Of a stretch of DNA of 64,000 bases, positions 22,370 through 36,506 are shown one piece after another. The position numbers and the translations under genes are program-made. A model generated the notes under the pieces. It saw only the letters and a list, made by a program, of their open reading frames with translations, ran no database searches and was not told where the DNA came from. Each line of letters starts with the position of its first letter. Position 1 is the first letter of the stretch. Source of the stretch: Bacillus bingmayongensis (lineage in GTDB: Bacteria; Bacillota; Bacilli; Bacillales; Bacillaceae_G); NCBI RefSeq assembly GCF_000299035.1, contig NZ_JH921517.1:919317-983316 (forward strand). The letters are read 5' to 3'.

Positions 22370-24079
22370 GTGAAAAAGAAAAAGATGAAAAAACTAACAG
22401 CAGTCGTAGCACCAGTTTTAGCAATGAGTATGGCATTAACAGCATGTTCTACATCAGGTGATGATAAGAAAGCAAGTACGAATTCAAGCGGAAGTGATAG
22501 CAAATCAGGTGAAAAATTAGCAGCAAAACAAGTGCTGAATCGTACAGAAACAAACGAAATTCCAACAATGGATACATCAAAAAATACAGACACTCTTGGA
22601 TCGCAAATTTTAGGGAATACAATGGAAGGGTTATATCGCCTTGATAAAGATAATAAGCCAATCCCAGCTGCAGCTGAATCAAGCACGAAAAGTGAGGATG
22701 GGAAAAAATATACATTTAAGCTTCGTAAAGATGCAAAATGGTCAAACGGTGATCCAGTAACAGCGAAAGACTTCGTGTTTGCATGGCAACGGTTAGTGGA
22801 TCCAAAGACAGCTGCAGAATATGCATTTATTGCGTACCCTATTAAAAATGCAGAAGCAATCAGTCAAGGAAAAGCAGAAGTTTCAACATTAGGTGTAAAG
22901 GCAGTTGACGATTATACACTTGAAGTTGAACTAGATAGTCCAGTACCATACTTCTTAAATTTAACAGCATTCCCATCGTATTATCCATTAAATGAAAAGT
23001 TTGTAAAGGAAAAAGGAGATAAATACGGTTTAGAATCTGATACAGTCGTTTACAATGGGCCGTTTGTTTTAACAGATTGGAAGCATGAAGAGGGCTGGAA
23101 GTTGAAGAAAAATGATAGTTATTGGGATAAAAAGAATGTGAAGTTAGACGAAATTAATTATAGTGTTGTAAAAGATATGGCAACTCGTGTAAATCTATAT
23201 GATAGCGGCCAAATTGACTTCACTTTATTAAGTGGGGAGTTTGTTGATAAATATAGAGCGAAAGAAGGAGAATTTGGCGTATATTCGGAACCAAGTACGT
23301 TCTTCTTACGTTTAAATCAAAAACGTGCTGGTCAAGATACGCCGCTAAAGAGCAAGAAATTACGTGAAGCAATTGCGCTGTCCATTAATAAAAAGGATTT
23401 AGCAAATGTAATTTTAAATGATGGTTCTAAACCAGCTGACTTCTTAGTACCAAAAGGGTTAGCGACTGGACCGGACGGTAAAGATTTCCAAGAAACATTT
23501 AAAAACGGTCTAAAACACGACACGAAAAAAGCAGCGGCAGCTTGGGAAGAAGCAAAGAAAGAGCTTGGTAAAGATCAAGTGACACTTGAATTTTTAAACT
23601 ATGATACAAGTAATGCGAAAAAAGTTGGTGAATATGTAAAAGATCAAATCGAGAAAAATTTAAAAGGTGTAACAGTAAATATTAAAATGCAGCCATTTAA
23701 ACAAAAGCTAAAATTAGAAACTGAGCAAGATTATGATTTCTCATATGGTGGTTGGAACCCAGATTATGCGGATCCAATGACATTCTTAGATATGTTTGAG
23801 TCTAATCATTCTCATAACCAAATGAGCTTCTCAGATTCTAAGTATGATGAAATCATTAATAAGGCATCAACGGAATTAATGGCGGATGCGAAGAAACGTT
23901 GGGAAGAGTTAGGGAAAGCAGAAAAACTGTTGCTTGAAGAAGATGTAGCGCTTGTACCATTACATCAAAATGCTAGATCGTATGTAATGAAACCAAACGT
24001 AAAAGGTGTTGTGAAACATAACATCAGTCCAGAATACAGCTTTAAGTGGGCTTACGTAACAGAAGAAAATAGTAAGTAA
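22370..24079 (+). CDS. Oligopeptide-binding lipoprotein (OppA type), paralogue 1
   Basis: Extracytoplasmic solute-binding protein of a peptide ABC importer (SBP family 5), 569 residues. Lipoprotein signal with lipobox LTAC at about Cys26, a Ser/Asp-rich linker, then the two-lobed binding fold with KYTFKLRKDAKWSNGDPVTA, the family signature region, and the C-terminal SPEYSFKWAYV. Start GTG at 22370 is set by GGGAGGGT eight bases upstream; ATG at 22385 is an alternative. No permease or ATPase genes are nearby, so it must use a transporter encoded elsewhere. About 80-90 per cent of residues agree with the two paralogues that follow. Confidence 0.92.
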   Translation: MKKKKMKKLTAVVAPVLAMSMALTACSTSGDDKKASTNSSGSDSKSGEKLAAKQVLNRTETNEIPTMDTSKNTDTLGSQILGNTMEGLYRLDKDNKPIPAAAESSTKSEDGKKYTFKLRKDAKWSNGDPVTAKDFVFAWQRLVDPKTAAEYAFIAYPIKNAEAISQGKAEVSTLGVKAVDDYTLEVELDSPVPYFLNLTAFPSYYPLNEKFVKEKGDKYGLESDTVVYNGPFVLTDWKHEEGWKLKKNDSYWDKKNVKLDEINYSVVKDMATRVNLYDSGQIDFTLLSGEFVDKYRAKEGEFGVYSEPSTFFLRLNQKRAGQDTPLKSKKLREAIALSINKKDLANVILNDGSKPADFLVPKGLATGPDGKDFQETFKNGLKHDTKKAAAAWEEAKKELGKDQVTLEFLNYDTSNAKKVGEYVKDQIEKNLKGVTVNIKMQPFKQKLKLETEQDYDFSYGGWNPDYADPMTFLDMFESNHSHNQMSFSDSKYDEIINKASTELMADAKKRWEELGKAEKLLLEEDVALVPLHQNARSYVMKPNVKGVVKHNISPEYSFKWAYVTEENSK

Positions 24080-24088
24080 TAAAGAGAG

Positions 24089-24134
24089 AAAAGCATTTCT
24101 ACAAGTAGTATATCTACTTTTGGAGATGCTTTTT
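24089..24134 (+). terminator. Terminator after oppA paralogue 1
   Basis: Stem AAAGCAT-TC / GA-TGCTTT with inner pairing AAGTAG / CTACTT, then TTTTT. Confidence 0.7.
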
Positions 24135-24338
24135 TCTATGTAGTGAATCTTGCTAAAAGATACGCTAGTTAATAGAAGGCGATGGTGATAGGAATACCGT
24201 ATATAAAGTATTTTAATATTAGCTTAAATAACGAGGAATTAATTGGCGTCATATAGTGAATGGCGGATTTTGTAAAGTAGTGTAACTAAAATATATGCTC
24301 ATTATAGTAGAAAATACTTTTGAGATTAAAAAAATAAC

Positions 24339-24400
24339 TTTACAAAACATAAAAAAACAGTAGAATATTAATTAATAAGAATTTTCTGATAATATATTAT
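24339..24400 (+). promoter_or_regulatory. Promoter and leader of oppA paralogue 2
   Basis: TTTACA (24339-24344), 16 bp, TAGAAT (24361-24366), then TTCTGATAA ... TATCAGAAA. Nearly the same as the elements before paralogues 1 and 3. The remaining gap sequence between paralogues 1 and 2 (24135-24338) has no gene. Confidence 0.65.
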
Positions 24401-24455
24401 ATATCAGAAAAATGACAAGGGTATCATCGTACATATAATTAGGGAGGGTATACAA

Positions 24456-26162
24456 ATGAAAAAGATGAAGAAGTTAACTGCGGTTGTAGCACCAGTTTTA
24501 GCAATGAGCATGGCATTATCTGCATGTTCGGGGTCAGGCGGAGATAAGAAGACAAGTACAACGTCTAATAGTGGTGAAGACAAGAAATCTAGTATTAAAT
24601 ATGCAGCAAAGCAAGTACTAAATCGTACAGAAAATCAGGAAATTCCAACAATGGATACTTCGAAATCAACAGATACACTTGGAGCGCAAATTTTAGGAAA
24701 TACGATGGAAGGACTATATCGGCTTGATAAAGATAATAAACCAATCCCAGCTGCGGCAGAATCTAGTACGAAAAGTGAAGATGGTAAAAAATATACATTT
24801 AAGCTTCGCAAAGATGCAAAATGGTCAAATGGTGATCCAGTAACGGCGCATGATTTCGTATTCGCATGGAAGCGCTTACTAGCTAAAGAGACAGCTGCCG
24901 AATATGCATTTATTGCTTACTACATTAAAAACGCAGAAGCAATTAATAAAGGACAAGCAGATGCATCGACATTAGGTGCAAAAGTAGTAGATGACTATAC
25001 ACTTGAGGTAGAATTAGAAAAACCTGTTCCATATTTCTTAAATTTAATGGCTTTCCCATCGTATTACCCATTAAATGAAAAATTTGTAAAAGAAAAAGGA
25101 GATAAATTCGGTTTAGAGGCGGATACAGTTTTATATAACGGACCGTTCGTTATGTCAGAGTGGAAGCATGAGCAAGGTTGGAAATTGAAGAAAAACGATA
25201 ATTATTGGGATAAAAAGAGTGTGAAACTAGAAGAAATTAATTATAGTGTTGTAAAAGAAGTAGCTACAAAAGTGAACTTATATGATACTGACGCAATTGA
25301 CTTTACATTATTATCAGGAGAGTTTGTTGATAAATACAAACCTAAGAAAGATGAATATGGTGAGTATGCAGAATCAAGTACTTTCTTCTTACGTTTAAAT
25401 GAAAAACGTGGTGGTCAAGATACGCCGCTGAAAAATAAAAAGTTACGTGAAGCAATTGCGTTATCAATTGATAAAAAAGGTTTAGCAAATGTTATCTTAA
25501 ACAATGGATCCAAACCAACGGATCAATTAGTACCAAAAGGACTAGCAAAAGGGCCAGATGGTAAAGATTTCACAGAGACATTTAAAAATGGTTTAAAGCA
25601 AGACACGAAAAAAGCAGCCGCAGCATGGGAAGAAGCGAAAAAAGAGCTTGGTAAAGACCAAGTGGCAATTGAATTGTTAAGTTATGATGATGGAACAGCG
25701 AAAAAAGTTGCTGATTATGTAAAAGACCAAATTGAGAAAAATTTAAAAGGTGTAACAATTAATACGAAAATCCAGCCATTTAAACAGAAGCTAAAACTAG
25801 AGACAGAGCAAGACTATGAAATCTCTTACGCAGGTTGGAGCCCAGACTATGCGGATCCAATGACATTTATCGATATGTTTGAAACGAAGAGCTCATACAA
25901 TCAAATGAGTTATTCCAATCCAAAATACGATGAAATGGTTAAACAAGCAGGAAATGAATTATTGTCTGATGTGAAAAAACGTTGGGAAGTGCTAGGAAAA
26001 GCAGAGAAATTATTGCTTGAAGAAGATGTAGCGATGATTCCTTTATATCAAAGAGGAAATGCGTATGTAATGAAACCAAATGTAAAAGGAATTGTAAAAC
26101 ATAATATCAGCCCAGAGTACAGCTTCAAGTGGGCGTATGTAGAGGAAAAAGGCGGAAAATAA
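24456..26162 (+). CDS. Oligopeptide-binding lipoprotein (OppA type), paralogue 2
   Basis: 568 residues, the same architecture: lipobox LSAC (about Cys23), linker rich in Ser and Lys, SBP family 5 binding domain. It is the most diverged of the three in the ligand-cleft half: for example SYDDGTAKKVADY replaces NYDTSNAKKVGEY and SYAGWSPDYADPMTFIDMF carries changes. That suggests different peptide preference. ATG at 24456 follows GGGAGGG. Own promoter and terminator. No transporter subunits adjacent. Confidence 0.92.
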   Translation: MKKMKKLTAVVAPVLAMSMALSACSGSGGDKKTSTTSNSGEDKKSSIKYAAKQVLNRTENQEIPTMDTSKSTDTLGAQILGNTMEGLYRLDKDNKPIPAAAESSTKSEDGKKYTFKLRKDAKWSNGDPVTAHDFVFAWKRLLAKETAAEYAFIAYYIKNAEAINKGQADASTLGAKVVDDYTLEVELEKPVPYFLNLMAFPSYYPLNEKFVKEKGDKFGLEADTVLYNGPFVMSEWKHEQGWKLKKNDNYWDKKSVKLEEINYSVVKEVATKVNLYDTDAIDFTLLSGEFVDKYKPKKDEYGEYAESSTFFLRLNEKRGGQDTPLKNKKLREAIALSIDKKGLANVILNNGSKPTDQLVPKGLAKGPDGKDFTETFKNGLKQDTKKAAAAWEEAKKELGKDQVAIELLSYDDGTAKKVADYVKDQIEKNLKGVTINTKIQPFKQKLKLETEQDYEISYAGWSPDYADPMTFIDMFETKSSYNQMSYSNPKYDEMVKQAGNELLSDVKKRWEVLGKAEKLLLEEDVAMIPLYQRGNAYVMKPNVKGIVKHNISPEYSFKWAYVEEKGGK

Positions 26163-26172
26163 TATGAGTTAG

Positions 26173-26218
26173 AAAAGCATCTCCAGAGGTAAGTACACTA
26201 CTTTTGGAGGTGCTTTTT
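26173..26218 (+). terminator. Terminator after oppA paralogue 2
   Basis: Stem AAAAGCA-CTCCA / TGGAG-TGCTTTT followed by T residues. Confidence 0.75.
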
Positions 26219-26460
26219 CATGGGAAGAAACTTGTTAATCAATTTCAATTGATTAAGAGTGGAAGAAAAAATAAAGGAAAGTCTTACATTCAAATGCTTT
26301 ATAACGAGAAAGAAGCATATATAATAGCGCTTAAAAAAATAGAAAAGAATAAGAAGGTTTTGATGCTCATATAGTAGATGGGGAGAATCTTGTAATTGTG
26401 CTATTAAAAAGTGAATTATTATTATAGAAAAATTATTTTCGGAATTTTATAAAAATAAAC

Positions 26461-26535
26461 TTTACAAACTCGAAAAAAACAGTAGAATATTAATTAATAA
26501 GAATCTTCTGATAACTTAATAGGTATCAGGATATC
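26461..26535 (+). promoter_or_regulatory. Promoter and leader of oppA paralogue 3
   Basis: TTTACA (26461-26466), 16 bp, TAGAAT (26483-26488), then ATCTTCTGATAA and GGTATCAGGATA. The rest of the gap from 26219 has no gene. Confidence 0.65.
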
Positions 26536-26579
26536 TCTCGAGAGTAGCATCGTACATATAAATTAGGGAGGGGACACAA

Positions 26580-28280
26580 ATGAAAAAGGTGAAGAAACTA
26601 ACAGCGGTTGTAGCACCAGTTTTAGCGGTAAGTATGGCATTATCGGCATGCTCAGGATCAGGTGGGGATAAGAAGACAGGTACGTCGTCTAATAGTGAGG
26701 AAGAGAAAAAATCTGATATTAAATATGCAGCAAAACAAGTGCTAAATCGTACAGAAACAAATGAAATTCCAACAATGGATGTTACGAAAAATACGGATAC
26801 ACTTGGATCACAAATTTTAGGGAATACAATGGAAGGCCTATATCGCCTTGATAAAGATAATAAGCCAATCCCAGCTGTCGCAGAATCTAGTACGAAAAGC
26901 GAGGATGGAAAAAAATATACATTTAAACTTCGAAAAGATGCAAAATGGTCAAACGGTGACCCAGTAACAGCGAAAGATTTCGTGTATGCATGGCAGCGGT
27001 TAGTAGATCCAAATACAGCTGCAGAGTACGCATTTATTGCATACTACATTAAAAATGCAGAAGCAATCAATCAAGGAAAGGCGGAAGTATCTACACTAGG
27101 GGCAAAAGCAGTAGATGATCACACACTTGAAGTAGAACTAGAAAGAGCAACACCTTACTTCTTAAATTTAACGGCGTTTGTATCATATTACCCATTAAAT
27201 GAAAAGTTCGTAAAAGAAAAAGGGGAGAAATTCGGTTTAGAATCTGATACAACACTTTACAACGGACCATTCGTGTTAACAGACTGGAAACATGAAGAGG
27301 GCTGGAAACTGAAGAAAAATGATAGTTATTGGGATAAAAAGACTGTAAAATTAGAGGAAATTAACTACAGTGTTGTAAAAGATGCAGCGACTCGAGTGAA
27401 TCTATATGATAGTGGTCAAATTGATTTTGCTTTATTAAGTGGAGAATTTGTTGATAAATATAGAAATAACAAAGAAGAGTTTGGAACATATTCGGAACCA
27501 AGTACGTTCTACTTACGTTTAAACCAAAAACGTGCTGGCCAAGATACACCACTAAAGAGCAAAAAATTACGTGAAGCAATTGCATTGTCCATTAATAAAA
27601 AGGATTTAGCAAATGTAATTTTAAATGATGGTTCTAAACCCGCGGATTATTTAGTACCAAAAGGATTAGCGGCTGGTCCTAATAGTAAAGATTTCCAAGA
27701 GACGTTTAAAAATGGGTTAAAACCGGATGCAAAAAAAGCAGCGGCAGCATGGGAAGAAGCGAAGAAAGAGCTTGGTAAAGATCAAGTAACGCTTGAATTT
27801 TTGAACTATGATACAAGTAATGCAAAAAAAGTTGGAGAATATGTAAAAGACCAAATTGAGAAAAACTTAAAAGGTGTAACAGTTAATATTAAAATGCAGC
27901 CATTTAAACAAAAGCTAAAATTAGAATCTGAGCAAGATTATGATTTCTCTTACGCTGGCTGGAATCCAGACTATGCGGATCCAATGACATATTTGGATAT
28001 GTTTGAATCAACAAACTCTCAAAATCAGATGAGTTATTCGAATCCAAAATATGATGAAATGATTAACAAAGGTAAGACAGAGTTAATGGCAGATGCGAAG
28101 AAACGTTGGGAAGAGTTAGGAAAGGCTGAAAAACTGTTGCTTGAAGAGGATGTAGCGCTTGTACCGTTATATCAAAATGCTAGATCGTATGTAATGAAAC
28201 CAAACGTAAAAGGAGTCGTAAAACATAACATCAGTCCAGAATACAGCTTCAAGTGGGCTTATGTAACAGAGGAAAAGTAA
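26580..28280 (+). CDS. Oligopeptide-binding lipoprotein (OppA type), paralogue 3
   Basis: 566 residues; lipobox LSAC near Cys23, the same binding fold as its neighbours. Its N-terminal linker is closest to paralogue 2, while the cleft and C-terminal half (FLNYDTSNAKKVGEY, VPLYQNARSYVMKP) are closest to paralogue 1. This mosaic pattern points to gene conversion or serial duplication. ATG at 26580 has GGGAGGGG. Terminator follows. Confidence 0.92.
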   Translation: MKKVKKLTAVVAPVLAVSMALSACSGSGGDKKTGTSSNSEEEKKSDIKYAAKQVLNRTETNEIPTMDVTKNTDTLGSQILGNTMEGLYRLDKDNKPIPAVAESSTKSEDGKKYTFKLRKDAKWSNGDPVTAKDFVYAWQRLVDPNTAAEYAFIAYYIKNAEAINQGKAEVSTLGAKAVDDHTLEVELERATPYFLNLTAFVSYYPLNEKFVKEKGEKFGLESDTTLYNGPFVLTDWKHEEGWKLKKNDSYWDKKTVKLEEINYSVVKDAATRVNLYDSGQIDFALLSGEFVDKYRNNKEEFGTYSEPSTFYLRLNQKRAGQDTPLKSKKLREAIALSINKKDLANVILNDGSKPADYLVPKGLAAGPNSKDFQETFKNGLKPDAKKAAAAWEEAKKELGKDQVTLEFLNYDTSNAKKVGEYVKDQIEKNLKGVTVNIKMQPFKQKLKLESEQDYDFSYAGWNPDYADPMTYLDMFESTNSQNQMSYSNPKYDEMINKGKTELMADAKKRWEELGKAEKLLLEEDVALVPLYQNARSYVMKPNVKGVVKHNISPEYSFKWAYVTEEK

Positions 28281-30632: not shown

Positions 30633-32732
30633 ATGAAGATTCGAATCTGTGCCACATTCATCTTTTTTCTATTATCGTGTTTGAATCCTTTTTCAACTTT
30701 TGCAAAAGGAGAGGAGGCAAAAGAAAGGGTCGTTTCACTTGTATATGATGATTCTGGCAGCATGAGAAATAACGATCGCTGGAAGTATGCCAATTACGCT
30801 TTGCAAAGTTTAGTTGCATTATTAGATGAAAAAGATAGCTTTTCATATGTTCCAATGAGTCGTCCTACTGAAGCAATTAGTGTCGGCTTAATGAATAAAA
30901 AAAGGCAAACAGAAATTGATCAAATTGGAGCATGGAAGAATTATTTAAATACGCCGTTTAGCGCAGTAGAGACCGCGATGCAATCTATTAAAAAGGAAGC
31001 AGACATAAATGGAAAACGTGAATTTTGGCTTATTGTATTAACTGACGGGGCATTTAATGAATTAGAAAAAGAAAAGACTGGCGGTAAAGAACAAATCACG
31101 CAGAAACTGGAACAATTTAAAAAAGAAATGGAAGCGAAAAAAATATCATTGCATCCAGTTTTAATAACAATGGAAGAAAACTTAGGACAGCAAGAACAAC
31201 AACAGATGAATACGTTCAAAGAAATTTGGAAGCAAAAAATAAATGGTATCATCATGCCGACGAGTGGGGAAGATGGAGTCATTCAAAGTGTAAATCAAGC
31301 AGCTGCCTTGGTTGCGAATCGAGATCCGTTTTCTTCTGTTGAATCTGTCGTGAAAACAAATATATCTGGTAATAAATTAGAGATTACTACGCCATTCCCA
31401 TTAAAGCGAATGACGTTCGTACAACAATCTACTAACGCATCGCAATATCGGATAGAACAACTTTCTAAACCATTAGAAGTACAATCGTCCTTTTCGATTC
31501 ACGCACCAGGAGAAGCAAAATTATATGGTGGTATTACTCATATCGGTGCTACGAACCATAAAGTAATTAACCCAGGGACATACAAATTAGAAATTGATAG
31601 AGATATTGTGAAAGAAGGATTGAAAGTACTTGTTGAACCAGCACTTGACTATACCGTTTCTACTTATGATAAAGAGGATAAAGCGAAAAAAAACGTTGAG
31701 AAAATGTATGAGGGAACGAAAGCAGTTATTGAAGCGAAACCGACAGATTTACCAATTCAATCTTCTTATTTCCAAGCAGAAATAGAACTAGATGGAAAGC
31801 TGTATCCAATGAAATGGGATAATAAAAGAAGCCTATTCTACTATGAGACACAAGTTGGAAAACAGCCAGTACGTGGGAAAGTTCATATGAATATAAAAGG
31901 GTTTTACAGACAAACGAGAGAGTTCCGAATCGATCCGATGCCAAAGGCAAAGTTGTCTTTGCAGGTCATAACGAAAGATTATGAGGAGAAGGTGACGAAT
32001 TTAGAAAAGAGTAAACCGTTTGTGTTGCAGCCATTACTAAATGGTGAACCAATGACAGAAGTGGAGGTAAAGAAACTACTGCAATCTACTGGTGTTACAT
32101 CTCATCAATCGATCAACTACGAACTGCGGCAACATGACAATCAAATTTATGTGTATCCTCGTCCTTACTACTCCGATACATTCAATTTTACAGATACCGG
32201 CACCATAGAAGCTACCATCACTATAAACGATTCAAGGTTACAAGAAGTAAAGAAAACGATTTCGTTTCATATTCAAAATGCACCATTCTGGGAACGTTAT
32301 GCGCTAATTTTTCAATTTGTAATCCCAGTTGCATTCCTACTTTTGCTGGTTGCGATTCTTATTTTAGGGTGGATTGTCCGGCCAAGGTTTCATCGGAAAG
32401 CAATGTTGTACTACGAATGGGATCAAGAAGTAGCGAAAGATTGGCTGTATCAATCTGAACCAGAATTACTAAGAAACAAATGGTGGAAACATTATTTTGG
32501 TATTCCATTTCGAGCAGAACGAAAGACGATACAATCCGTAACCTTTATAGCGAAAAAAGGTTCAAAGTCTATATTTGTAGCAAAGGAATCACAAGTGATC
32601 GGTATGATCATTGACGGTATGTTTATAACAGAGGAAGACGCTGGAAATGAGCATAAAACATTATATCCGAATGAAATTTTACTGATTGATCGTGGATATG
32701 GAAAAGAAATCTATCGATACGAATGTGAATAA
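30633..32732 (+). CDS. Exported von Willebrand factor A domain protein, membrane-anchored
   Basis: 699 residues from ATG at 30633 (AAGGTGG upstream, slightly long spacing). N-terminal export signal (about 1-25; an LLSC sequence might also be a weak lipobox). A vWA domain follows, about 32-230, with metal-site residues in YDDSGSM (Asp39, Ser41, Ser43) and VLTDGAF. The middle, about 240-545, looks like several beta-sandwich repeats. One strong membrane span lies at about 557-582, followed by 117 basic-to-aromatic residues predicted inside the cell. So the vWA domain would be outside and the tail inside. The next gene is a large tubulin-like cytosolic protein, suggesting a joint role across the membrane. 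No named family recognised beyond vWA. Confidence 0.85.
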   Translation: MKIRICATFIFFLLSCLNPFSTFAKGEEAKERVVSLVYDDSGSMRNNDRWKYANYALQSLVALLDEKDSFSYVPMSRPTEAISVGLMNKKRQTEIDQIGAWKNYLNTPFSAVETAMQSIKKEADINGKREFWLIVLTDGAFNELEKEKTGGKEQITQKLEQFKKEMEAKKISLHPVLITMEENLGQQEQQQMNTFKEIWKQKINGIIMPTSGEDGVIQSVNQAAALVANRDPFSSVESVVKTNISGNKLEITTPFPLKRMTFVQQSTNASQYRIEQLSKPLEVQSSFSIHAPGEAKLYGGITHIGATNHKVINPGTYKLEIDRDIVKEGLKVLVEPALDYTVSTYDKEDKAKKNVEKMYEGTKAVIEAKPTDLPIQSSYFQAEIELDGKLYPMKWDNKRSLFYYETQVGKQPVRGKVHMNIKGFYRQTREFRIDPMPKAKLSLQVITKDYEEKVTNLEKSKPFVLQPLLNGEPMTEVEVKKLLQSTGVTSHQSINYELRQHDNQIYVYPRPYYSDTFNFTDTGTIEATITINDSRLQEVKKTISFHIQNAPFWERYALIFQFVIPVAFLLLLVAILILGWIVRPRFHRKAMLYYEWDQEVAKDWLYQSEPELLRNKWWKHYFGIPFRAERKTIQSVTFIAKKGSKSIFVAKESQVIGMIIDGMFITEEDAGNEHKTLYPNEILLIDRGYGKEIYRYECE

Positions 32733-32740
32733 TAGAGGAA

Positions 32741-32883
32741 GTTCAAAAAGTCCGGTAAAGATAGCTGTCGTATTTCTTCGTGACGTTGCCAGTCCGGTAC
32801 TCATGTAGTTTTCAGCTACACTCCGTATTCAGCTGGCGTCTGCGCCTTGAACTACTTGGCTCTCTTTATCTTCCTTTTTGAAC
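32741..32883. repeat. 143-bp inverted-repeat element inside the vWA/tubulin operon
   Basis: Ends GTTCAAAAAG (32741-32750) and CTTTTTGAAC (32874-32883) are perfect inverted repeats. Matching continues with GGTAAAGA against TCTTTATC. The GC content inside is higher than the surroundings and there are internal hairpins, such as GTAGTTTTCAGCTAC. It is non-coding and resembles other small intergenic repeats of the B. cereus group. It would be part of the mRNA if the two genes are co-transcribed. Confidence 0.65.
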
Positions 32884-32908
32884 ACGCACTTATAGGAAGG
32901 TGGTTCAC

Positions 32909-35900
32909 ATGACATTACAAGTTCCCACAATTTTAATTGGTTTAGGTGGAATCGGTAGTACTGTTACACATCAAATATATGAAAAATTGCCAGAGGAACG
33001 ACGTAAAAAGGTAGCAATGCATGTCTTTGACACAGATGTGAATACATTAAGTAAATTTGAGCATATTCGTAAGTTCAAGACACAAACTAGCTCTAGTAAA
33101 ACACCGCGAGAATATATTGCGGGGGATCCGACGATTCCAGAATGGTTTCCGATGGACCCTACAATTCTAGATAAACCATTAACAGAAGGAGCTGGCCAAC
33201 TCCGTGTGATTTCACGCTTAGCCCTTCGGGCAGCGATGAAAGAAGATAAATTGACTGCTTTTTGGCAAGAAATCGAAAAGATTTTTCCTGTCACAAGTGA
33301 TCAAACAGAGTATGGTGTTCGCGTTATTATCGTTACATCATTAGCTGGTGGTACCGGTTCAGGTATGTTCTTACAAATTGCATTGTATTTACGCGAAATG
33401 CTTCGAAAAAAATTACAACATCATAACATTTTAATACGGGGTGCATTTTTAATGCCAGATGCACTTGTTAAGACGCGCACCGTTAGTGCGAAAGAATTTG
33501 AAACTGTGCAGGCAAACGGTTACGCGTCATTAAAAGAGTTGCATGCAATTACACTTGGTTCAACAGGTGAATTATCAAAGCGGGGCGGTGTAACAATTGA
33601 ACTAGAGTATCGTCCGGATCAAGTGGATGAAGACGGGAGAACGAATCATACAATTAAAGAACATCATTTACCATATAATTATTGTTTCTTATATGATTAT
33701 GAAAATTTACATGGTCATCATTTACACAATCTATCAGATTACATGGAACAAATGACAAACACGATTTATTTACAGCTATTTAGTCCGATGTCCACAAGTC
33801 ATTTTGCACAAGAAGATAATCAAATTCAGCAGTTGGCAGAATCGAATGGAAAAGCACGTTATTGCGGTGCTGGAACGGCAAAGCTCATTTATCCATATGA
33901 GCATGTTTTAAAATATTGTGCCTTGAAATGGGCTGTGCAAGGATTAGATGAATCATGGCTCCATTTAGATCAATTGTTTCAAGAGAAAAAACAGCGGTAT
34001 GAGCAAGATGTTCGCCGTGGTATGCAGCGTGAAAAGCCAGAGCGAGGGAAAAGTTATTTAGAAGATTTAGAGCATCTTGCCACTCGTCCGGAGCAAGCGC
34101 ATATTTTCTATAGACAAATGTATAATGAAACACGCGAAGGTGCAGAGGGAGGTAAGGTTGGCGTTGCGAAATCCAAGTTGTTTTTAGAAGCAGTTGAAAG
34201 TTATGTACAGCGTACTGTACAAAAAGACGAAGAGTTAAATAGGTTACAGCATGAATGTAAAATATCTGCTGCAAAGCTTAAAATGATGGAGCAAATGAAG
34301 GGGGAAGTGGCGAGAGTTGATCATGCAGTTCGGTTATATGCATACGCGATTCCAAGTCGTGTACATGAACATGTGACGACGCTTTTGTATGACATGATAG
34401 AATCGGATCGATATGCACCTAGTGGTTCAGAAGGACAGTCATATCAACTAAATACGTGGTTTTTAAAGAAAACAGAAGCTGTTCATCCAGTGGCTGCTCG
34501 TTTTATGCTATATGAAATTCGGAAGCAATTAGTAGAGAAGATGAATCGCTTACATGAGAATAATGAACAGAAGCGTAATTTAATTCAAAACTACGATAAG
34601 AAATTTAATGTAAGTAATATTGATGGTACAGTAACAGCAGTGCGCCGCGTTGAACTGGCGCAGCAGCAAGGTTGGTTTGGAAAGGTGTTCTACAATCAGC
34701 AGCGTACATTCCGAAAAGAATTTGAAGATATAGTCACGCAATATGTGCATAAGTTGAATGAATATCGTAAAGAAATGTTACTTGAACTCGTTTATCAATC
34801 CTTATATCAAGCAGTAAATAAAATGATCCAACATTGGGAAAGGTTCTTTGATAATTTACAAGAGACACGTGAAAATTTGCTGTTTGAAATTCAAAAACGA
34901 AGCAAAGAATTTGAAGGGAAAACAAATCCAACAAATGTATATGTATTAGCAGATGAAAAGCTACAAGAAAGAATATGGGAAGATATGCAGCAACATTTAA
35001 ATTTAGGTGTGCTTCCCAAGGATATATCAGCGGAGATTTATATGAGCTTGTATGCGGAATATTGTCGTGATACACAAGCGGAAGAAAGTCAATCTAAGAA
35101 GGTAGAGGATTTTTATCGGGAGCACATTTTAACGTATTGCTATGCCGAACTTCAAGTGCGATATCGTGACAAACTAGAGCTTAATATTATTGAAGCATTG
35201 CGAAAAGAAGCGGATTTTAAAAAACGTGATCGTAATGAGTATGTGAGAGAAAAAATTGAAGACCTTTTCCATTTAGCAAGTCCATTTATTCCGAAAGTAG
35301 CCCATCATCGTGAGTTACAATATTGGGGGGTACATCCTTCACTAAAACAGGAACTACAAGAAGAACTATTGCAAGAAATGTTTCAAGAAAAAGATACAGT
35401 GAATGAAGCATTTTCACCATTTGAAGTAATTTGTTACCGAGCACATTATGGATTGTCGTTACAAGATTTTCCTAAGCTTTCATCTGGACATCTTGCAAAT
35501 GGTTTTATGAATGATAAAGGTGACTATTTTCAGTCTTATTATCGCCGCGTGAATAAATTAAATATCAAAAAATCGAATTTAACACCACATTTAGATAAAT
35601 ATTGGCACTTACCAGCCTTTATGCCGGACTTAAATGCAACGCAGACCAAGTTAGATTATGATAAATGTAATCGTGCTCTTCTTTATGCATATATGTATCG
35701 GTGGATTAGTCTTGTTGCTGTCGATGGTCAATTTGTATATCAATACAATGGTGTAGGTCGCAGCTTTTTAATTCAGTCAATGGGAAAAAATATTTCAAGC
35801 GAAAGCTATAAATTGCATCGCGCATTGCTTCATAATCCGTTTATTTATGAAAATATTTTGTCACGTTTTGAAGAAGAGCAGGAAAAAGCAATGCTCCAAG

Positions 35901-36271
35901 GTGGGCATTTGTATACACAAGTCTTTGTGTTAGGTGCTCAAGATGTAAGATGGCTTCGCAAAGAGCATGTTCATAATATTTTAGATATCATTTTAATGTA
36001 TGACCGTGAGGCAAAGTATGATCCAACGCTAGAAGAAACATCAGATGAATTATTGCGTTTACTTCTAGATGAGATAAGGCTGTATTTTCAAAGTTATTAT
36101 GGTACGGGTGCAGAAATGGTGGCAAAGAAAGAAGCAGAGACGTTTGTAAAACAGCTATGGGACCGTTCGTATGCAAAAGGTTATGTGGATCCCAATAGTG
36201 CGCCTTATAAAAAGTGGCAACATGCATTACATGTTCAAGATGAGGAACAAGACACAAAAACGAATGTATAG
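32909..36271 (+). CDS. Large tubulin/FtsZ-like protein (Tubulin_2 type)
   Basis: 1120 residues from ATG at 32909 with AGGAAGG upstream. The N-terminal region has the nucleotide-binding marks of the tubulin/FtsZ superfamily: LIGLGGIGS (11-17, first glycine loop), VFDTD (39-43), GAGQLR (94-99) and the tubulin signature AGGTGSG (146-152). Its order and spacing fit the bacterial Tubulin-like (Tubulin_2) group. The remaining 850 residues are mostly charged helix, with likely coiled coils around 440-480 and 560-680, and no membrane span. It probably binds GTP and may polymerise; that is inference from the family. Placed after a membrane vWA protein and before a 47-residue acidic protein. Confidence 0.8.
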   Translation: MTLQVPTILIGLGGIGSTVTHQIYEKLPEERRKKVAMHVFDTDVNTLSKFEHIRKFKTQTSSSKTPREYIAGDPTIPEWFPMDPTILDKPLTEGAGQLRVISRLALRAAMKEDKLTAFWQEIEKIFPVTSDQTEYGVRVIIVTSLAGGTGSGMFLQIALYLREMLRKKLQHHNILIRGAFLMPDALVKTRTVSAKEFETVQANGYASLKELHAITLGSTGELSKRGGVTIELEYRPDQVDEDGRTNHTIKEHHLPYNYCFLYDYENLHGHHLHNLSDYMEQMTNTIYLQLFSPMSTSHFAQEDNQIQQLAESNGKARYCGAGTAKLIYPYEHVLKYCALKWAVQGLDESWLHLDQLFQEKKQRYEQDVRRGMQREKPERGKSYLEDLEHLATRPEQAHIFYRQMYNETREGAEGGKVGVAKSKLFLEAVESYVQRTVQKDEELNRLQHECKISAAKLKMMEQMKGEVARVDHAVRLYAYAIPSRVHEHVTTLLYDMIESDRYAPSGSEGQSYQLNTWFLKKTEAVHPVAARFMLYEIRKQLVEKMNRLHENNEQKRNLIQNYDKKFNVSNIDGTVTAVRRVELAQQQGWFGKVFYNQQRTFRKEFEDIVTQYVHKLNEYRKEMLLELVYQSLYQAVNKMIQHWERFFDNLQETRENLLFEIQKRSKEFEGKTNPTNVYVLADEKLQERIWEDMQQHLNLGVLPKDISAEIYMSLYAEYCRDTQAEESQSKKVEDFYREHILTYCYAELQVRYRDKLELNIIEALRKEADFKKRDRNEYVREKIEDLFHLASPFIPKVAHHRELQYWGVHPSLKQELQEELLQEMFQEKDTVNEAFSPFEVICYRAHYGLSLQDFPKLSSGHLANGFMNDKGDYFQSYYRRVNKLNIKKSNLTPHLDKYWHLPAFMPDLNATQTKLDYDKCNRALLYAYMYRWISLVAVDGQFVYQYNGVGRSFLIQSMGKNISSESYKLHRALLHNPFIYENILSRFEEEQEKAMLQGGHLYTQVFVLGAQDVRWLRKEHVHNILDIILMYDREAKYDPTLEETSDELLRLLLDEIRLYFQSYYGTGAEMVAKKEAETFVKQLWDRSYAKGYVDPNSAPYKKWQHALHVQDEEQDTKTNV

Positions 36272-36328
36272 CATGAAGATAGGGAACCCTTAATTATGTC
36301 AATACTATTTTTGAAAAGAGGGGTTCAG

Positions 36329-36472
36329 ATGCCGTTTTTAGGAAGCGTGTATCAAATATTTGGATTATATCCAGAGATTTATCATGCGATGATTTCGATG
36401 GAAATGCAGGAAGAAGAATTACGTAATGAGCATGTGGAAAAGAGCGATGTGGAAATAGAAATGGAAGATTAA
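36329..36472 (+). CDS. Small acidic protein after the tubulin-like gene (47 aa)
   Basis: ATG at 36329 with AAGAGGGG upstream; an in-frame ATG at 36296 lacks a site. The product begins MPFLGSVYQIFGLYPEIYH and ends in a very acidic helix (EEELRNEHVEKSDVEIEMED). It lies 57 bp after the tubulin-like stop and shares its terminator, so it is likely the third gene of that operon. An acidic tail could bind the basic parts of a filament protein, but that is speculation. Confidence 0.6.
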   Translation: MPFLGSVYQIFGLYPEIYHAMISMEMQEEELRNEHVEKSDVEIEMED

Positions 36473-36506
36473 AAAAGCCATGCAGATTTCATCTGCATGG
36501 CTTTTT
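36472..36506. terminator. Bidirectional terminator
   Basis: 16-bp perfect stem (core AAGCCATGCAGAT / ATCTGCATGGCTT), 3-base loop, between the 47-residue gene and brnQ, which converge. Confidence 0.9.

What the first reader, a model, noticed from the sequence alone, without database searches (positions are those of the whole stretch)
30633..36472. vWA membrane protein + giant tubulin-like protein + small acidic protein: a possible transmembrane cytoskeletal system
Seen: an exported vWA protein with an intact metal site (DDSGSM), one span and a 117-residue inside tail. It is followed by a 1120-residue protein with tubulin/FtsZ glycine loops (GLGGIG, AGGTGSG) and long charged helices, then a 47-residue acidic protein ending in a strong terminator. 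All are on one strand. Known: vWA domains bind ligands via metal; the bacterial Tubulin-like group has no settled function. Inferred: the outside domain senses or binds a ligand and the tail couples to a GTP-dependent filament inside. A conflict/defence, envelope or sporulation role is open.
Basis: partly seen in the sequence, partly recalled or inferred. Interest (0 to 1): 0.75.

Follow-up and report, generated by a model that had tools for sequence, protein, structure and literature searches.

The report
Membrane-receptor-linked bacterial tubulin gene pair
The two large genes are a real, tightly paired unit made of an outside-facing metal-binding receptor and a giant relative of the cell-division protein FtsZ; the pairing was described in 2010 and 2020, and what it does is still unknown.

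Summary
Observation confirmed. Gene 1 (30633-32732) encodes an exported vWA protein with the metal-site signature, one membrane span and a 118-residue tail. Gene 2 (32909-36271) encodes a Tubulin_2/FtsZl1 protein (PF13809, E 2e-79). The 47-residue ORF is there but is not a conserved part of the system.

The pairing is known: FtsZl1-vWA operons (Makarova & Koonin 2010; a reviewer there names a Bacillus thuringiensis vWA gene) and GTPase/tubulin/vWA systems (Kaur 2020).

New here: in 397 genomes of one order the vWA profile hits 12 (one copy broken), exactly the 12 with this FtsZl1 type. Relatives carry a third, apparently membrane-spanning protein of about 720 residues (8 of 15 genomes) that the window's clade lacks (0 of 5); it also lacks the DO-GTPase (0 of 5). 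The window's type is thus a minimal two-gene version at a conserved chromosomal place. A 143-bp insert splits the pair in the window, not in 12 same-type relatives.

Membrane-anchored, GTP-dependent assembly is the likeliest mechanism but is inferred. AlphaFold failed (pLDDT 39), so the fold rests on sequence profiles.

The parts
30633..32732 (+). vWA membrane protein, 699 aa (P0001)
   Evidence: vWA gene directly upstream of FtsZl1 in 20 of 23 loci read
30747..30764 (+). metal-site (MIDAS) core DDSGSM, residues 39-44
   Evidence: invariant in 12 of 12 aligned proteins, with T107 and D138
32292..32393 (+). single transmembrane span of P0001, about residues 554-587
   Evidence: hydropathy; followed by RPRFHRK (positive-inside rule, recalled)
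32376..32729 (+). predicted cytosolic tail of P0001, residues 582-699
   Evidence: most conserved region of the protein in the window's clade, 64% mean pairwise identity of 5 sequences against 58% for the vWA domain and 39-48% for the beta-rich middle
32741..32883 (.). 143-bp insert with exact 10-bp inverted ends (GTTCAAAAAG/CTTTTTGAAC) between the two genes
   Evidence: absent in 12 of 12 same-type relatives with an intact vWA gene
32909..36271 (+). FtsZl1 / Tubulin_2 protein, 1120 aa (P0002); GTG 32900 is an alternative start
32939..32959 (+). T1 loop GLGGIGS, residues 11-17
   Evidence: G11, L12, G13, G14, G16 invariant in 13 of 13; matched to FtsZ
33344..33364 (+). T4 signature loop AGGTGSG, residues 146-152
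   Evidence: residues 147-152 invariant in 13 of 13; matched to FtsZ
33809..33826 (+). QEDNQI, candidate T7-like acidic loop, residues 301-306
   Evidence: EDNQI invariant in 13 of 13; the equation with T7 is by eye (inference)
36329..36472 (+). 47-aa acidic ORF (P0003), judged not part of the system
36472..36506 (+). intrinsic-terminator-like site

Best explanation
This is a minimal, two-gene member of the FtsZl1-vWA family of systems. Shown by sequence: an exported vWA domain with an intact metal-site signature, a beta-rich stem, one span and a conserved cytosolic tail, closely paired with a giant FtsZ-like protein that keeps the GTP-binding loops and has a long, probably helical C-terminal part. 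Inferred: the outer domain binds a wall or surface ligand through the metal; the tail recruits or caps the FtsZ-like protein at the membrane; GTP-dependent assembly there organises or remodels the envelope. The vWA protein would be the membrane anchor that FtsZ gets from FtsA, SepF or ZipA (recalled). A constant chromosomal place points to a housekeeping envelope role rather than a mobile defence cassette. Identity about 0.95; mechanism about 0.35.
For: PF13809 E 2.3e-79; FtsZ profile match from T1 to H6; pairing in 12 of 12 genomes out of 397 (chance 3e-21 if genomes were independent, which they are not); vWA gene directly upstream in 20 of 23 loci; tail is the best conserved part of the vWA protein in the window's clade; the order signal, vWA, stem, span, tail also holds in the other FtsZl1 subfamily; shared neighbours in Ectobacillus and Bacillus sp. 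165; conventional ftsZ present as well in 8 of 8 genomes tested; a Tubulin_2 gene interruption in Synechocystis impairs phototaxis (PMC9880817, section 9 read).
Against: No test of GTP binding, polymerisation or interaction. The T6, H7 and T7 elements needed for FtsZ-type filaments were not matched by the profiles, and the 2010 paper could not identify T6-H7 either; EDNQI is not kept in the DO-GTPase-type FtsZl1 proteins. The AlphaFold model failed. One of 23 loci (L062) has FtsZl1 with no vWA gene in the stretch read. In clade 2 the tail (39%) is less conserved than the vWA domain (47%), and the tails of the two FtsZl1 subfamilies are only 13-14% identical.
Confidence: 0.45

Rival explanations
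1. FtsZl1 is a GTP-dependent switch or scaffold that does not form filaments; the long helical part does the work and the vWA protein reports an outside signal to it.
For: No confident T6-H7-T7 match to FtsZ; most of the protein beyond residue 330 is predicted helical (low-confidence model); the 2010 authors list absence of filaments as a possibility.
Against: EDNQI and YENxxG are invariant in 13 of 13 where T7 and T6 would lie (placed by eye); the 2010 authors state that all characterised FtsZ/tubulin proteins form filaments.
Confidence: 0.3
2. It is a conflict (anti-phage) system, a stripped relative of the DO-GTPase/GAP1-N2 tubulin systems of Kaur et al. 2020.
For: Homologous FtsZl1 and vWA proteins sit in such gene clusters (L030, L031, L065-L067).
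Against: No DO-GTPase in 5 of 5 window-clade genomes; no effector-like gene in the two-gene unit; shared chromosomal neighbours; no PADLOC match for the three proteins, and two matches among ten neighbours that look generic (a methyltransferase to 'mad2', an amino-acid transporter). FtsZl1 (77-79% to Ectobacillus) is better conserved than the neighbours compared (45-75%) except an aldehyde dehydrogenase at 84%.
Confidence: 0.15
3. It supports a surface machine such as transport, a pilus-like assembly or adhesion rather than membrane shape.
For: [quoted passage not shown] a 2010 reviewer proposed transport or signalling; transporter genes (OppA-like, branched-chain and other amino-acid permeases, EamA) lie near the pair in the window.
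Against: The two amino-acid transporters next to the pair in the window gave no match in the stretches read from L001-L004, and no pilus gene was recognised among the ten neighbours scanned. The Synechocystis protein itself was not compared here.
Confidence: 0.15

Closest known systems
FtsZl1-vWA operons (Makarova & Koonin 2010, PMC2875224; parts 1-3 of 5 read)
   Same: N-terminal FtsZ-like domain, long middle and C-terminal helical parts, adjacent vWA gene, metal site mostly intact. A reviewer names the Bacillus thuringiensis konkukian vWA protein BT9727_3336 among those checked, so a pair of this bacterial group is very probably already in print (I could not compare the sequence).
   Different: The paper lists kinases, a GTPase and OmpA-like genes as frequent or occasional further parts; none was found beside the window's pair (ten neighbours).
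DO-GTPase / GAP1-N2 systems with tubulins and vWA (Kaur et al. 2020, PMC7159879; section 29 and passages read)
   Same: Homologous FtsZl1 and homologous exported vWA proteins.
   Different: No GTPase, second tubulin or second vWA gene among the ten neighbours scanned; no DO-GTPase anywhere in 5 of 5 clade genomes.
FtsZ with its membrane anchors
   Same: GTP-binding loops T1-T4; a membrane partner (inference).
   Different: About three times as long as FtsZ (1120 against 375-403 aa); an outside-facing vWA receptor as partner; conventional ftsZ is present as well.

Membership tests
FtsZl1 (PF13809 Tubulin_2) | Tubulin_2 domain over the curated cut-off | tested here: met
   267.7 bits vs 27
FtsZl1 (PF13809 Tubulin_2) | GG(G)TG(S/T)G loop and T1 glycine loop | tested here: met
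   AGGTGSG and GLGGIG
FtsZl1 (PF13809 Tubulin_2) | long coiled-coil or helical middle and helical C-terminal part | tested here: inconclusive
   helices predicted from about residue 330 onward, but model pLDDT is 39
FtsZl1 (PF13809 Tubulin_2) | adjacent vWA gene in most members | tested here: met
   20 of 23 loci directly upstream, 1 more three genes downstream
vWA domain protein | DxSxS...T...D metal site | tested here: met
   invariant in 12 of 12; that these T and D are the metal-site ones is recalled knowledge of the fold
vWA domain protein | Pfam VWA model over its cut-off | tested here: not met
   21.6 bits vs 27; but profile-profile match to proteins that pass it
DO-GTPase/GAP1-N2 system | DO-GTPase gene | tested here: not met
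   0 of 5 window-clade genomes; none among ten neighbours in the window; the window's own whole genome is not held
DO-GTPase/GAP1-N2 system | GAP1 protein | not tested
   not searched for in genomes; no Pfam match of that kind among the ten neighbours
FtsZ-type cytomotive filament | T7 catalytic loop and helix H7 | tested here: inconclusive
   conserved EDNQI and YENxxG by eye; not aligned by hhalign
FtsZ-type cytomotive filament | GTP-dependent polymerisation | not testable with these tools
   needs protein

The most novel reading that the evidence does not exclude
The window's clade holds the irreducible core of a bacterial outside-in cytoskeleton: one metal-dependent surface receptor directly coupled through its tail to one giant tubulin relative, with the usual GTPase, kinase and third membrane protein absent. 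It would be a prokaryotic counterpart, in working principle and not by descent, of integrin-to-cytoskeleton coupling.
Probability: 0.2. Interest if true: 0.8.

Novelty: new member of a known kind. Interest (0 to 1): 0.42.

Why it matters
FtsZl1 proteins are among the most diverged FtsZ/tubulin relatives, and in the open-access library held here I found no paper with a biochemical function for them (searches). A two-gene version without an accessory GTPase, kinase or third membrane protein beside it is the simplest setting in which to ask whether they polymerise and whether an outside ligand controls it. The 720-residue protein of the sister clade is a concrete candidate for a further membrane partner.

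Tried and rejected
Third partner by homology: the 720-residue protein (A1) shows no relation to FtsZl1 or to the second tubulin of DO-GTPase-type clusters by hhalign. A weak link to the 653-residue protein after FtsZl1 in L063 (HMMER E 1.7e-4 in a set of 9, hhalign probability 8%) is left open. Whether the third gene was lost by the window's clade or gained by the other is not resolved: the third-gene group is supported at only 49/91.

Small acidic protein as partner: rejected. Mobile or phage origin: three protein scans of viral contigs found no relative (each rests on 2-6 short peptide patterns). In the phage set one unverified human-gut scaffold (L060) carries a vWA-FtsZl1 pair, probably a bacterial contig (inference). 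Seven plasmid records have relatives at 23-32% identity. Defence: PADLOC negative for the three proteins. Rfam: nothing in the window at gathering thresholds. The insert: no second copy in the window, none in plasmids or, for a 23-base probe, in viral contigs; chromosomes of the window's own group could not be searched. Its fold is only modestly better than chance (z -2.0, 5 of 200 shuffles as good). PDB sequence searches gave no relevant hit for either protein (best E 0.14, to FIS). A literature search with five gene tags, one from the 2010 paper and four guessed, showed nothing relevant in the 5 of 13 papers listed.

Mistakes: one search used wrong coordinates and was replaced; the hopene-cyclase rows were out of frame and were redone.
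Full report
WHAT IS THERE. The window holds an exported vWA protein (P0001, 30633-32732, 699 aa), a 1120-aa Tubulin_2 protein (P0002, 32909-36271) and a 47-aa acidic ORF (P0003, 36329-36472), all on the + strand, ending at a terminator-like site at 36472-36506. P0002 matches PF13809 at E 2.3e-79 and, below its cut-off, PF00091 at 1.4e-6. P0001 has the metal-site core DDSGSM plus T107 and D138, invariant in 12 of 12 aligned proteins, one hydrophobic span and a 118-residue tail. Its Pfam vWA match is below cut-off, but its family matches clear vWA proteins by profile comparison (96%, E 3e-9). The window looks like a Bacillus cereus-group chromosome; that is recall, not a tool result, and no genome is held for it.

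CO-OCCURRENCE. One scan of the genome collection found 4 relatives, 3 in Ectobacillus and 1 in Bacillus sp. 165, at 65-79%. In 397 genomes of the same order, 22 have a Tubulin_2 match at E up to 1e-3; 14 are full-length (open frame over 1100 aa, E 1.3e-63 or better) and 8 are weak partial matches that I did not follow. A profile of the vWA protein hits 12 of 397 genomes (by the handles the same draw). These are exactly the 12 with the window's type of FtsZl1; one of the 12 copies (G252) is partial with a stop codon. The other two full-length genomes (G162, G171) carry a different vWA subfamily and a DO-GTPase. The genomes are related to each other, so the hypergeometric value of 3e-21 overstates the case. 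Of 23 loci that I read (some nearly identical), 20 have a vWA gene directly upstream on the same strand, 1 has it three genes downstream (L061), 1 has it broken (L034) and 1 has none in the stretch read (L062). In a phylum-wide draw, 14 of 398 genomes match, 10 of them at E 7.4e-49 or better (one of these, G002, was also in the order draw). Of the 9 new ones I fetched 6; G466, G731 and G771 were not fetched.

VARIANTS. Type 1 (window, L001-L004, L032): vWA + FtsZl1 only. Type 2 (L033, L035-L040; L034 broken): vWA + FtsZl1 + a third protein of about 720 aa; no Pfam match in the 2 of 7 scanned, and a hydrophobic stretch about two thirds along that looks like two spans (by eye). The third-protein profile hits 8 of 15 FtsZl1 genomes (in G252 in two pieces) and none of the 5 type-1 genomes. 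Type 3 (L030, L031, L065-L067): vWA + FtsZl1 + a protein of 772-815 aa that is probably a diverged second tubulin (2 of 5 match PF13809, best E 8.5e-4), a P-loop protein in 5 of 5 and a second, multi-span protein with a DxSxS motif in 4 of 5. The P-loop protein was tested for DO-GTPase in L031 and in the genomes of L030 and L031, and matches. This fits the Firmicute GAP1-N2 systems of Kaur et al. 2020, although I did not identify GAP1. DO-GTPase2 is found in 3 of 15 FtsZl1 genomes: in the operon in G162 and G171, and on another contig in G038; in 0 of 5 type-1 genomes. The FtsZl1 tree puts the window in a type-1 clade with full support (100/100).

CHROMOSOMAL PLACE. Relatives share neighbours with the window: an oligopeptide-binding protein and a methyltransferase (L002), the DUF1294, EamA and DUF212 proteins (all four of L001-L004), hopene cyclase (three of four). 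FtsZl1 is 77-79% identical to the Ectobacillus versions, the vWA protein 50-56%, the EamA protein 56-66%, the DUF212 protein 73-75%, the cyclase 54%, and an aldehyde dehydrogenase 84%. The window has a branched-chain amino-acid transporter and a permease between the pair and these neighbours, which gave no match in L001-L004. This is a vertically inherited chromosomal locus (inference). G+C is unremarkable.

HOW IT MAY WORK. Mean pairwise identity within type 1 (5 sequences) is 85% for the GTPase part and 65-76% for the rest of FtsZl1; in the vWA protein it is 58% for the vWA domain, 39-48% for the stem, 36% for the span and 64% for the tail. A conserved inside tail next to a faster-changing outside stem is what one expects of a receptor that holds a conserved cytosolic partner. 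In type 2 the tail is less special (39% against 47% for the vWA domain), and between types 1 and 3 the tails are only 13-14% identical. The N-terminal part of FtsZl1 matches FtsZ from T1 through T4 to H6 (143 columns, 90.5%, E 1.3e-6). Beyond that, YENxxG and EDNQI are invariant in 13 of 13 and lie where T6 and T7 would be; the 2010 paper could not find T6-H7. My placing is by eye, was not reproduced by hhalign, and EDNQI is not kept in type 3. The AlphaFold model of the whole protein failed (pLDDT 38.8; only 5 close sequences could be used), though its order of strands and helices in the first 310 residues is compatible with the FtsZ core. A second job on the N-terminal domain could not be started.

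THE INSERT. In the window 143 bp with exact 10-bp inverted ends lie between the two genes (32741-32883). Type-1 and type-2 relatives with an intact vWA gene have at most 27 bp there (12 of 12); one type-3 locus (L031) has 63 bp. It looks like a small repeat element of the kind known in this group (recall). It may weaken translational coupling of the two genes (inference).

THE SMALL PROTEIN. Its first 18 residues are 61% identical to the start of a 100-aa protein downstream of FtsZl1 in L003 (E 2e-4), and 53% over 19 residues in L004 (E 0.002); L032 carries the same 100-aa protein. The rest differs, and L001 and L002 gave no such match. It is probably a shortened relative of a neighbouring gene, not a component (inference).

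LITERATURE. PMC2875224 (parts 1-3 of 5 read): defines FtsZl1, its vWA partner and the membrane-remodelling idea; a reviewer lists the vWA protein BT9727_3336 of Bacillus thuringiensis konkukian. I could not compare its sequence, so I can only say that it is likely the same gene. PMC7159879 (passages and section 29): conflict-system reading. PMC9871819 (passages): treats Tubulin_2 proteins as a separate, sparse group. PMC9880817 (section 9 read): interruption of sll0445 (Tubulin_2) in Synechocystis impairs phototaxis and alters photosystem II fluorescence; this is the only mutant phenotype I found for the family (searches).

VERDICT. A real, closely paired, conserved system of a known kind; the window's lineage carries its smallest version. 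Function open.

Noticed in passing
window 32741-32883: 143-bp insert with inverted ends between the two genes, absent in relatives; single copy in the window.
   Followed up: partly
window 22370-28280: Three tandem, similar oligopeptide-binding (OppA-like) genes.
   Followed up: no
L033, L035-L040: A conserved third protein of about 720 aa with two apparent spans follows FtsZl1; no Pfam match in the two scanned.
   Followed up: partly
L034 (G252:C57): Same operon with a broken vWA gene and a split third gene but an intact FtsZl1 frame: decay or assembly error.
   Followed up: no
L060 (MT836542.1): A record labelled Bacteriophage sp. from human faeces carries a vWA-FtsZl1 pair; probably a bacterial contig.
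   Followed up: partly
G001 (Ectobacillus panaciterrae): Three strong ftsZ matches (E 1.1e-130 or better) on three contigs of one genome.
   Followed up: no
L062: FtsZl1 gene without a vWA neighbour, beside a 313-aa and an 830-aa protein.
   Followed up: no
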